Below, piece by piece: positions 11,929-18,684 of a stretch of DNA of 56,624 nucleotides; position 1 is the first letter of the stretch, and every line of letters starts with the position of its first letter. A model generated the notes under the pieces. It did no database searches, was not told where the DNA came from, and saw nothing but the letters and a program-made list of their open reading frames with translations. The position numbers and the translations under genes were made by a program. The DNA is from a virus: IMG/VR virus record IMGVR_UViG_3300025872_000067, positions 1-56,624 of that record. One strand, given 5' to 3'.

Positions 11929-12984
11929 TCACTCATACGCCACGCCATCGTCCATCGCCCGGGCCTTGCGAGCCTCGAAGGCGGCGCGGCGGCGTTCGAT
12001 CCATTCCACCCCGGCCAGCTTCCAGTCGGTGGCGGCGACGTTGTCCAGCTCCGCCAAGGCGGCGTCGAAGCGGGAGGGGTTGGATACCTTCTTGAAAGCC
12101 TGGTGGGCCTTGAGCATCGGGATCGCCACGCGACGGAAGAAGTGGTCACGGAAGCCCACGGCGTCCGGCTCGCTCAGGAACATCATCAGCTCCTGGTTCC
12201 ACTCCTCCGGGTCCGTGGACATCAGCGGGTAGGGCTCCGCGATCCCGGCGGCGTAGGGGTCGGGCGTCTCCTTCCCGGTCATCGGGTTGGCGGCGAGTTC
12301 CGCGAGCGGGGCGACCTTGTCCAGCACCTCCTCATAGGCGTGGAAGTTGGCGCTGACTTGGCGATAGATGCCCTGTTCAACCCCGACACTCCGGGCGACG
12401 TACTCATGGAGGTAGCTGAAGTGGACCGCGTTGGCCCCGTAGGCTCCCCAGATCAGGTCGTTGGAGCGGTTGGTCACGGTCATGTCCAGGCGACCGTCGC
12501 AGGCGATCTGGAAGATGGCCTGAAGGTTGCACGGGAGGTCCTTGCCTTGGCGGCCCAGGTCCGCGTCCGCGTCCCACATCGACAGGACCTGGCGGCGGTC
12601 ATCGCGGTTCGCCTTCAGGGCGGCGATGATCTTGGGCAGCTGGTCCTCGAAGAAGTGCTGGCGCCAGCGGAAGCCGTAGGCCCCGTGGAAGGTCACGCCG
12701 TCATCCGAGTAGCTGCGCACGCGATCCACGAAGCGGGCAACGTACTCCACGTCATTGCGTCCGCCCAGCATCCAGAGGCTTTCCATCAGGTGGAAGAAGG
12801 GGTTGGCGTCCCGTTCCGCCCAGAACAGCACGCGCTCCGCCGGGCGGAGGTACACGGTGGTGACGGGTTCCGGGAACATGAACACGGGGCCGTTGCGCGA
12901 GTCGCGGCGGACGCCCTCGAAGGACAGTTGATACAGGGCCTCCGGGAGGGCCTGTTGTACGTTGCGGGTCTTGATGACTTTCAT
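11929..12984 (-). CDS. Thymidylate synthase-family enzyme, candidate dUMP hydroxymethylase
   Basis: The 351-residue enzyme has the TS nucleophile motif DLPCNLQ (C152) and the nucleotide-binding segment RSNDLIWGAYGANAVHFSYL (R173, D176, N185). Asn rather than Asp in this segment argues for a dUMP rather than dCMP substrate. Members of this family either methylate dUMP to dTMP or hydroxymethylate it to 5-hmdUMP. The hypermodification genes upstream make the latter more likely here, but sequence alone does not separate the two. Confidence 0.85.
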   Translation of the reverse strand: MKVIKTRNVQQALPEALYQLSFEGVRRDSRNGPVFMFPEPVTTVYLRPAERVLFWAERDANPFFHLMESLWMLGGRNDVEYVARFVDRVRSYSDDGVTFHGAYGFRWRQHFFEDQLPKIIAALKANRDDRRQVLSMWDADADLGRQGKDLPCNLQAIFQIACDGRLDMTVTNRSNDLIWGAYGANAVHFSYLHEYVARSVGVEQGIYRQVSANFHAYEEVLDKVAPLAELAANPMTGKETPDPYAAGIAEPYPLMSTDPEEWNQELMMFLSEPDAVGFRDHFFRRVAIPMLKAHQAFKKVSNPSRFDAALAELDNVAATDWKLAGVEWIERRRAAFEARKARAMDDGVAYE

Positions 12985-13493
12985 GCTGATTGTTCCTTTT
13001 CCACAAATATCTTGCGTTGATAGGACCTGCGGCGCATTTCCTCCGAGGAGGTTTGAGCAGCCATTTTGCGTAGTCGGTCGGTTTGTAGCCGTCCCACTTG
13101 ACTCCAGACTTCTTTGCCGGGGTCACTGGTTTCCGTCCAGGTTGCCCGTCCGAGCTTCCCGGCTGCGTGTTGGGCCTTGGCGCGTTCGCTCAGCAACCGC
13201 CGGTGTTCCGGGTCCGAGACGCGGCGGGAGGCTCCCGCACGCATCTTTTGACGGATTTCTTCAGTCACCGCCCGCCCCTTGCCATGTAGCTTCGCGTGCT
13301 CCGCCCGTGTGAGCAATTGCAGGTTTTGATAGTCGTTGTTGGTCTTGTCTTCGTCCCGATGGTGGAGGACGTACCCCCGAGGAACCGGGGAGTTGCCGTG
13401 AGACTCCCAGACATAGTGGTGCTCGCGCTTCCACTTTCCGTCCGGGAGTTTCACCCACCAGTAGCCGTAGAATTTGTCAAAACGACGTTTCAT
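12981..13493 (-). CDS. HNH homing endonuclease
   Basis: A 170-residue free-standing HNH protein. The motif reads YVLHHRDEDKTNNDYQNLQL followed by AEHAKLHG, giving the paired His, Asn and final His of the fold. The C-terminal ~90 residues are basic, with helix-turn-helix-like repeats probably contacting DNA. It is inserted between the TS-family gene and the kinase-associated gene, overlaps the TS start (ATGA), and lacks a strong ribosome-binding site. Base composition is less GC-rich than its neighbours. It most likely promotes its own spread. Confidence 0.8.
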   Translation of the reverse strand: MKRRFDKFYGYWWVKLPDGKWKREHHYVWESHGNSPVPRGYVLHHRDEDKTNNDYQNLQLLTRAEHAKLHGKGRAVTEEIRQKMRAGASRRVSDPEHRRLLSERAKAQHAAGKLGRATWTETSDPGKEVWSQVGRLQTDRLRKMAAQTSSEEMRRRSYQRKIFVEKEQSA

Positions 13494-13499
13494 GTTTAT

Positions 13500-16964: not shown

Positions 16965-17807
16965 TCAGTCGTCACCGATGTTCCAAAACACTACAGGCCC
17001 CCAGGCCCGTACCTCCTCCGGGTCCCGAGCGGACAACCAATGATACGCCTTCAAGTCATAGAACTTGTTGCAAGGAAATGGTGCCGTCGCACTTTTGGGG
17101 GCCGCGTCCGCGTACCCGTAGCCCTCGTCAATGAACTTGATCCGGTCGCCCAAGGTCAGTCCCGCGGCCTTCTCGATGTACTCCCGGGTGGCGTCCTGGC
17201 TCCGCGAGTAACCCATGTGAAGGATGACGTTGTAGTTGCGGAGCAGGCCCGCCTCCTCGAAGCCCTTGAGCACCCCGGCGGCGACCGTCCCCGAGCTGAT
17301 ACTGATGACCAGGGTCCCGGAGTCCGGGAGGTGCGGGGCGGTGCGGACGGCCTCCGCGGCGTTCTCCGTGATCGACTCCGGGAGCTTCAGGGCGTTCGGC
17401 ATCAGGTAGCTGTCGTGGTAGTTCTCCCGCAGGTGCTTCTTGGCCGTATGGTACAGGATCGCGGAGCGGCCCGCCGGGATGTCCACGAGGTCCGCCCCGA
17501 GCTGGCGAGCGTGCTGCTGTTGGACGCGCGGGGCGTCCGCGGCCCCGTCGCGCTTGAAGCGGGGCCAGTAGTCCACGGCCTGTTTCCCGAGCTGCTGGCA
17601 GACGTAGGCGACCGCCCAGCCCGCCTTCGAGTGGTATGTGTCCAGACAGCCGATGGTGGTCTCAGGCCGGTTCTTGATATGGGCTACAACTCCGCGAATC
17701 TTGCTGAAGGACGGACCCGGGAGCGGGGCGCACAGGTCCTCCCGCTTCACGAGGATCGGGACCCCGTTGAGCTCATAGGTTTCGACCGGGGTGTTGTTGA
17801 CGATCAT
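16965..17807 (-). CDS. Fold-type II PLP-dependent enzyme
   Basis: The 280-residue protein resembles the threonine synthase/ACC deaminase fold: LVKREDLCAPLPG followed by SFSKIRG, where K36 is the likely PLP lysine, and SISSGTVAAG as the phosphate-binding loop. It lacks the length of a full biosynthetic enzyme. In the M6-type pathway a PLP enzyme decarboxylates the amino acid built on thymidine; this gene directly follows the transferase-like gene (start 7 bases after AAGGAG). The DNA-level role is inferred; free amino-acid chemistry is the alternative. Confidence 0.75.
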   Translation of the reverse strand: MIVNNTPVETYELNGVPILVKREDLCAPLPGPSFSKIRGVVAHIKNRPETTIGCLDTYHSKAGWAVAYVCQQLGKQAVDYWPRFKRDGAADAPRVQQQHARQLGADLVDIPAGRSAILYHTAKKHLRENYHDSYLMPNALKLPESITENAAEAVRTAPHLPDSGTLVISISSGTVAAGVLKGFEEAGLLRNYNVILHMGYSRSQDATREYIEKAAGLTLGDRIKFIDEGYGYADAAPKSATAPFPCNKFYDLKAYHWLSARDPEEVRAWGPVVFWNIGDD

Positions 17808-17808
17808 C

Positions 17809-18684
17809 TCACTGCTCCTTGGGCATGTGGTTGAGGAAGGCCCGCGCGGCGGAGCAGCGGCCCGCCCACGGTTCGAGCCCGCCGTTGATTTCCCGGATGT
17901 CGTTCCAGAGCGGGTAATGGCCATTCATGTGGGACTTCCATTTACACAGGACCGTCTCGACTTCCTGGATGTTCACGGGGCGGTCGCTCAAGGGCGGGGC
18001 TGCGAGGTCCGCGAACCGCCCAATCAGGTAGTCCGCGACCCCGGACAGGATCGCCTCGCGCTTGGGCTTCGCGTTCTCCGGGTACTTGTGAGCCTCGCGC
18101 TGCTCCCACAGCATCATCGCGGCCTTCTCCGGGTCCTTGAACATGAACACGGCGGCGTTGTCGAAGTCCACCGGGACCTCCATCACCCGGTCCATCATGT
18201 CCGCGATCTTGAAGCCGATCCACGGACCGAAGCCGTTGTGCTCCTGGGCGCGGGCGGAGACGGTGCGGAAGGGCAGGCGATCATCCTCCGTCGCCCGGGC
18301 TCCCACGTACAGGGCCATGTTCTCCGGGCGGTCGCCGTAGCGGGCCTGGATGGAGGTCACGGAGTCCACGGCGATCTTGGCCCTGTAGTGGCGGCGCTCG
18401 TGTCCCCGGGGCCAGCGTCCTCCGGCGGGCGTCTCCTCCTCGTTGCGGGCCGCGACCATCATCCAGTGCCAGAACTCCTCGCCCTCCTTCTCGCTGAGGA
18501 AGGAGGCGACACCGGCGTGGTAGAAGCACCAATATGCGAGGAGCCAACGGCAGAGCTGCGGCACGGAGAAGTCCCCCGCCTGCTCCGCCCGAACCAGGGC
18601 CGTGTAGATGGGGTCCAGATCGCCGGTGGTGATCAGGTGGCGGCCCAACGTCTCGATGTCCAGCCGGGGGTAGTTTCTGCTCAT
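17809..18684 (-). CDS. Amino-acid:DNA transferase-like protein (aGPT-PPlase clade 2/ADDT)
   Basis: The 291-residue protein has segments typical of the family once predicted as alpha-glutamyl/putrescinyl-thymine pyrophosphorylases and later shown to attach amino acids to phosphorylated 5-hmd[15 protein letters not shown], then [14 protein letters not shown] with conserved basic and Trp residues, and [16 protein letters not shown] with a helix-hairpin-helix look. It starts the hypermodification cluster and overlaps the PLP gene's ribosome-binding site. The amino acid used cannot be read from the sequence; glycine (as in M6) is a guess from the accompanying enzymes. Confidence 0.8.

What the first reader, a model, noticed from the sequence alone, without database searches (positions are those of the whole stretch)
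11929..18684. Compact thymidine hypermodification cluster with radical SAM and PLP steps
In one stretch the genome encodes a TS-family enzyme, a P-loop kinase, a 5-hmdU-kinase-associated helical protein, a radical SAM enzyme, a fold-type II PLP enzyme and an amino-acid:DNA transferase-like protein. Seen in the sequence: catalytic motifs for each (C152 in the TS-like enzyme, Walker A in the kinase, CxxxCxxC in the SAM protein, the PLP lysine K36). Known: phages such as M6 and ViI build amino-acid-derived thymidines from 5-hmdU by this logic, with radical SAM and PLP steps in M6. Inferred: this phage replaces part of its thymidine with an aminoethyl-type or new derivative. The chemical product is not predictable from sequence.
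Basis: partly seen in the sequence, partly recalled or inferred. Interest (0 to 1): 0.9.

Follow-up and report, generated by a model that had tools for sequence, protein, structure and literature searches.

The report
M6-type aminoethyl-deoxyuridine phage gene cluster
This is the known gene set that Pseudomonas phage M6 and its many close relatives use to change part of the thymine in their DNA into an aminoethyl form that blocks host restriction enzymes; this copy is nearly identical and ordinary, apart from lacking one accessory gene (Nmad5) that its cultured relatives carry.

Summary
In detail: all six enzymes are there, intact, in one minus-strand block with the stated motifs. The window is an uncultivated relative of Pseudomonas phage M6 (genus Yuavirus). 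Five of the six proteins are 94-99% identical to M6 gp58, gp54, gp53, gp52 and gp51; the sixth (gp55, HMUDK_hel) is about 82-86%. M6 DNA contains 5-(2-aminoethyl)deoxyuridine (5-NedU), so the product is predictable by orthology: 5-NedU, not an unknown derivative. About 50 cultured phage records carry the same block. What differs from M6: the Nmad5 gene (M6 gp56), found in essentially every cultured phage with this cluster, is absent and an HNH gene occupies its place; M6 gp57, gp50, gp48 and gp47 are also missing; and two tandem DNA methyltransferases lie just downstream. AlphaFold plus Foldseek places the radical SAM enzyme nearest spore photoproduct lyase, which fits a thymine side-chain reaction. 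New member of a known kind; low interest.

The parts
11929..12984 (-). TS-family deoxyuridylate hydroxymethylase (M6 gp58 orthologue), nucleophile C152
   Evidence: 97% aa identity to M6 gp58; Pfam Thymidylat_synt E 4e-18; best PDB relatives are CMP 5-hydroxymethylases
12981..13493 (-). HNH endonuclease 1 (free-standing, likely homing type), occupying the place of M6 gp56/gp57 (Nmad5)
   Evidence: Pfam HNH_3; M6 gp56/gp57 have no match in the window; relatives at the same place in BILI and PAE1 next to Nmad5
13500..14450 (-). HMUDK_hel helical protein associated with the 5-hmdU DNA kinase (M6 gp55 orthologue; also called aGPT-PPlase1)
   Evidence: 82% (BLASTP) to 86% (multiple alignment) identity to M6 gp55; Pfam HMUDK_hel E 3e-56
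14462..15025 (-). 5-hmdU DNA kinase, P-loop (M6 gp54 orthologue; often misnamed terminase small subunit)
   Evidence: 99% identity to M6 gp54; Pfam HMUDK_HMUD1 E 5e-18
15080..16534 (-). Radical SAM enzyme (M6 gp53 orthologue; often misnamed DNA repair photolyase), CxxxCxxC 129-136 and five conserved C-terminal cysteines
   Evidence: 97% identity to M6 gp53; PHROG 9252; cysteines invariant in 13 relatives; AF2 model nearest spore photoproduct lyase
16524..16913 (-). HNH endonuclease 2 between the radical SAM and PLP genes
   Evidence: Pfam HNH_3 E 4e-13; 95% identical copy at the same site in L021 and 43-48% relatives at the same site in L013, L024 and PAE1
16965..17807 (-). Fold-type II PLP enzyme (M6 gp52 orthologue; annotated threonine dehydratase), lysine K36
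   Evidence: 94% identity to M6 gp52, divergence confined to the last ~40 residues; Pfam PALP
17809..18684 (-). Amino acid:DNA transferase, predicted glycine transferase (M6 gp51 orthologue; aGPT-PPlase2)
   Evidence: 98% identity to M6 gp51; Pfam ADDT E 2e-46; PDB 25qc nearly identical, PDB 8z2m glycinyltransferase E 3e-90
11281..11916 (-). HD-domain 5'-deoxynucleotidase-like protein (M6 gp59 orthologue), probable nucleotide-pool helper
   Evidence: 98% identity to M6 gp59; Pfam YfbR-like
5788..6276 (-). dCMP deaminase, probable source of dUMP
   Evidence: Pfam dCMP_cyt_deam_1 E 2e-16

Best explanation
This is the 5-NedU pathway of an M6-type Yuavirus. Inferred steps: (1) the TS-family enzyme makes 5-hydroxymethyl-dUMP, which after phosphorylation is built into DNA as 5-hmdU; (2) the kinase, with the HMUDK_hel partner, phosphorylates 5-hmdU in DNA at a subset of sites (TG/TC contexts in M6); (3) the ADDT protein replaces the phosphate with glycine; (4) the radical SAM enzyme, related to spore photoproduct lyase, rearranges the glycyl group from N-linked to C-linked; (5) the PLP enzyme decarboxylates it to 5-(2-aminoethyl)deoxyuridine. 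The effect is resistance to many restriction enzymes. None of this was shown for this phage itself. Steps 1-3 and the end product rest on orthology to M6 and PaMx11 proteins and on papers; the order and chemistry of steps 4-5 rest on my memory of the M6 literature, which was not readable here.
For: Orthology to all six M6 proteins in the same order; Pfam families; 5-NedU in M6 DNA and TG preference of the M6 5-hmdU kinase (PMC6449724); same cassette listed for M6-like phage SN1 (PMC9476957); glycinyltransferase structure 8z2m as relative of the transferase; spore photoproduct lyase as nearest fold of the radical SAM enzyme; the six genes co-occur even in a contig whose radical SAM is only 55% identical; active-site residues retained.
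Against: No nucleoside data exist for this phage. Nmad5 and four other small M6 genes are missing, so level or sequence context of the modification could differ. The PLP C-terminus (about 40 residues) and parts of HMUDK_hel differ from M6. The radical SAM model has low confidence (mean pLDDT 57).
Confidence: 0.92

Rival explanations
1. The cluster makes a different thymidine derivative, because the divergent PLP C-terminus, the changed HMUDK_hel or the loss of Nmad5 alters the last steps or removes an end modification.
For: Nmad5 absent while cultured relatives carry it; PLP tail and HMUDK_hel are the least conserved parts.
Against: Catalytic residues and the full six-gene set are unchanged; Bordetella homologues differ more and hold the same set. 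No extra tailoring enzyme such as the PaMx11 acetyltransferase or FAD enzyme was found in the window.
Confidence: 0.06
2. The cluster is present but inactive, interrupted by invading HNH genes.
For: Two HNH genes lie inside the block.
Against: All six reading frames are intact and start where relatives start; HNH genes lie between genes, not within them; PAE1 carries HNH genes at comparable sites.
Confidence: 0.02

Closest known systems
Pseudomonas phage M6 5-NedU cluster (gp51-gp59, NC_007809)
   Same: Six pathway genes in the same order and strand, 94-99% aa identity for five and about 82-86% for gp55; flanking polA, HD hydrolase and RNR also match
   Different: Window lacks gp56 (Nmad5), gp57, gp50, gp48 and gp47; has two HNH genes in the block and two tandem DNA methyltransferases downstream
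Pseudomonas phages PAE1 and BILI (Yuavirus)
   Same: Same pathway block with an HNH gene next to HMUDK_hel (both) and between radical SAM and PLP (PAE1)
   Different: Both keep Nmad5 beside the HNH gene; the window has the HNH gene only
Pseudomonas phage PaMx11 (Abidjanvirus)
   Same: TS, HMUDK_hel, kinase and ADDT homologues (28-58% identity); its transferase is very probably the solved glycinyltransferase 8z2m
   Different: Uses an FAD enzyme and an acetyltransferase instead of radical SAM and PLP enzymes
IMG/VR contigs L024, L012, L015, L017
   Same: Pathway genes without a detectable Nmad5
   Different: Partial contigs; no tandem methyltransferases found in the stretches held

Membership tests
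M6-type 5-NedU pathway | TS-family hydroxymethylase with catalytic cysteine | tested here: met
   97% to gp58, C152 present
M6-type 5-NedU pathway | 5-hmdU DNA kinase (HMUDK_HMUD1) plus HMUDK_hel protein | tested here: met
   Pfam hits over cut-off, Walker A present
M6-type 5-NedU pathway | Amino acid:DNA transferase (ADDT) | tested here: met
   Pfam ADDT; 98% to gp51; relatives 25qc and 8z2m in PDB
M6-type 5-NedU pathway | Radical SAM enzyme of the gp53 family with CxxxCxxC | tested here: met
   97% to gp53; motif at 129-136
M6-type 5-NedU pathway | PLP enzyme of the gp52 family with catalytic lysine | tested here: met
   94% to gp52; K36
M6-type 5-NedU pathway | 5-NedU present in virion DNA | not testable with these tools
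   needs LC-MS of virion DNA
Cultured M6-type cluster gene content | Nmad5 (PF18757) gene beside the TS gene | tested here: not met
   no PF18757 match in the whole window; treated as accessory because it is also absent from several contigs with the pathway
PaMx11-type pathway | FAD enzyme and acetyltransferase in place of radical SAM and PLP | tested here: not met
   neither found in the window
Genus Yuavirus | Genome-wide similarity to M6/YuA by ICTV criteria | tested here: inconclusive
   only about 15 kb compared (mostly 92-98% DNA identity); whole-genome value not computed

The most novel reading that the evidence does not exclude
Loss of Nmad5, together with gain of two methyltransferases with different central (target-recognition) regions, gives this phage a different DNA modification state from M6, for example altered level or sequence context of 5-NedU plus added base methylation.
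Probability: 0.2. Interest if true: 0.4.

Novelty: new member of a known kind. Interest (0 to 1): 0.2.

Why it matters
It adds an uncultivated phage to the M6 type and corrects the idea that the product cannot be predicted. The useful new point is small: Nmad5, whose function is unknown and which has been linked to Tmn immunity in Dhillonvirus (PMC11846954), can be missing from phages that otherwise keep the whole 5-NedU pathway, so this phage and contigs like L024 are natural comparisons for what Nmad5 does.

Tried and rejected
(1) A contig with a 55%-identical radical SAM (L023) seemed to lack the PLP and HMUDK_hel genes and so to end at a different product; a whole-record search found both elsewhere on the 78 kb contig, so the lead was dropped. 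(2) HMUDK_hel as a paralogue of the transferase ADDT: no support from profile comparison and no PDB fold match for its model. (3) HNH genes disrupting the pathway: rejected, all frames intact. (4) The pathway papers (NAR gkab781, PNAS 1714812115, and PMC11472151 on glycyl-thymidine) are not held, so step chemistry beyond what other papers state is from memory.

Full report
What is there. Pfam assigns Thymidylat_synt, HMUDK_hel, HMUDK_HMUD1, PALP and ADDT. The radical SAM protein has no Pfam hit but matches PHROG 9252 end to end and radical SAM NCBIfam models below their cut-offs.

What it is. A DNA search against 50,697 phage records returned Pseudomonas phage M6, YuA, LKO4, PAE1, MP1412 and other Yuaviruses; in 51 records one place covers at least 80% of the 9 kb query, mostly at 95-99% identity. 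Protein identity to M6 is 97% (gp58), 99% (gp54), 97% (gp53), 94% (gp52), 98% (gp51) and 82% (gp55, BLASTP; 86% in the multiple alignment). M6 DNA holds 5-(2-aminoethyl)deoxyuridine and resists about half of the type II enzymes tested; its kinase modifies TG sites (PMC6449724). The same cassette is listed for phage SN1 (PMC9476957). The window is the whole held record, 56,624 bases, a virus contig without a completeness estimate.

How it works. The transferase is nearly identical to PDB entry 25qc and clearly related to the glycinyltransferase 8z2m, which supports glycine as the installed amino acid. An AlphaFold model of the radical SAM protein is of low overall confidence (mean pLDDT 57), but its best PDB matches are spore photoproduct lyase, E about 2e-6, ahead of other radical SAM enzymes. 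Spore photoproduct lyase acts on a thymine lesion in DNA (established knowledge), so the match fits a radical rearrangement at the thymine side chain. Besides CxxxCxxC, cysteines 402, 425, 430, 433 and 443 are invariant in 13 relatives and may bind a second metal site; that is inference. The HMUDK_hel model (pLDDT 78) has no PDB fold match. The PLP step as decarboxylation, and the N-to-C rearrangement, are from memory of the M6 papers, which were not held.

What differs from M6. M6 gp56 (Nmad5), gp57, gp50, gp48 (UDG-like) and gp47 have no match in the window, and PF18757 is absent from the whole record. An HNH gene overlaps the TS start by 4 bases and fills the place of gp56/gp57. In BILI and PAE1 a related HNH gene sits beside an intact Nmad5, which suggests invasion first and loss later. 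Among cultured phages, 53 Pseudomonas records match the radical SAM protein and 53 match Nmad5; the listed names overlap almost completely, but I compared lists by eye, not every record. Contigs L012, L015, L017 and L024 also show no Nmad5 next to the TS gene.

Verdict. The finding is real and correctly recognised in outline, but it is the known M6 pathway in another M6-type phage. The Nmad5 loss is a modest, testable difference.

Noticed in passing
window 9129-9938 and 9939-10727 (-): Two tandem N6_N4-type DNA methyltransferases (TSPPY motif, N4-cytosine-like by that motif). Their N- and C-terminal parts are about 77-98% identical per 60-nt block, but the central ~300 nt only about 35-58%, which looks like two target specificities. 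Not in M6 or PAE1 at this site; best phage match is Stenotrophomonas phage S72 at 61%.
   Followed up: partly
window 16440-16534: The radical SAM N-terminus (MQSEFDHKQWLEGDTGEAAQ) beside HNH2 matches the Bordetella phage CN2 version rather than M6, consistent with co-conversion next to an endonuclease gene.
   Followed up: partly
L023 8971-15286: Distant cluster (IMG/VR 3300047319_000798) with a 55%-identical radical SAM, ADDT, two HMUDK-type kinases and a 2OG-Fe(II) oxygenase; its PLP and HMUDK_hel genes lie elsewhere on the contig. Possibly a different end product.
   Followed up: partly
phage record annotations, e.g. L001 (NC_007809.1): Pathway genes are widely misnamed: kinase as terminase small subunit, radical SAM as DNA repair photolyase, PLP enzyme as threonine dehydratase.
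   Followed up: no
L001 4608-5168 and L007 7049-7609: Nmad5 occurs as two alleles about 55% identical among otherwise near-identical Yuavirus clusters, which may point to diversifying pressure on this gene.
   Followed up: no
L011 (PV844354.1): Phage EKU1 carries the cluster with many broken frames, probably sequencing errors.
   Followed up: no
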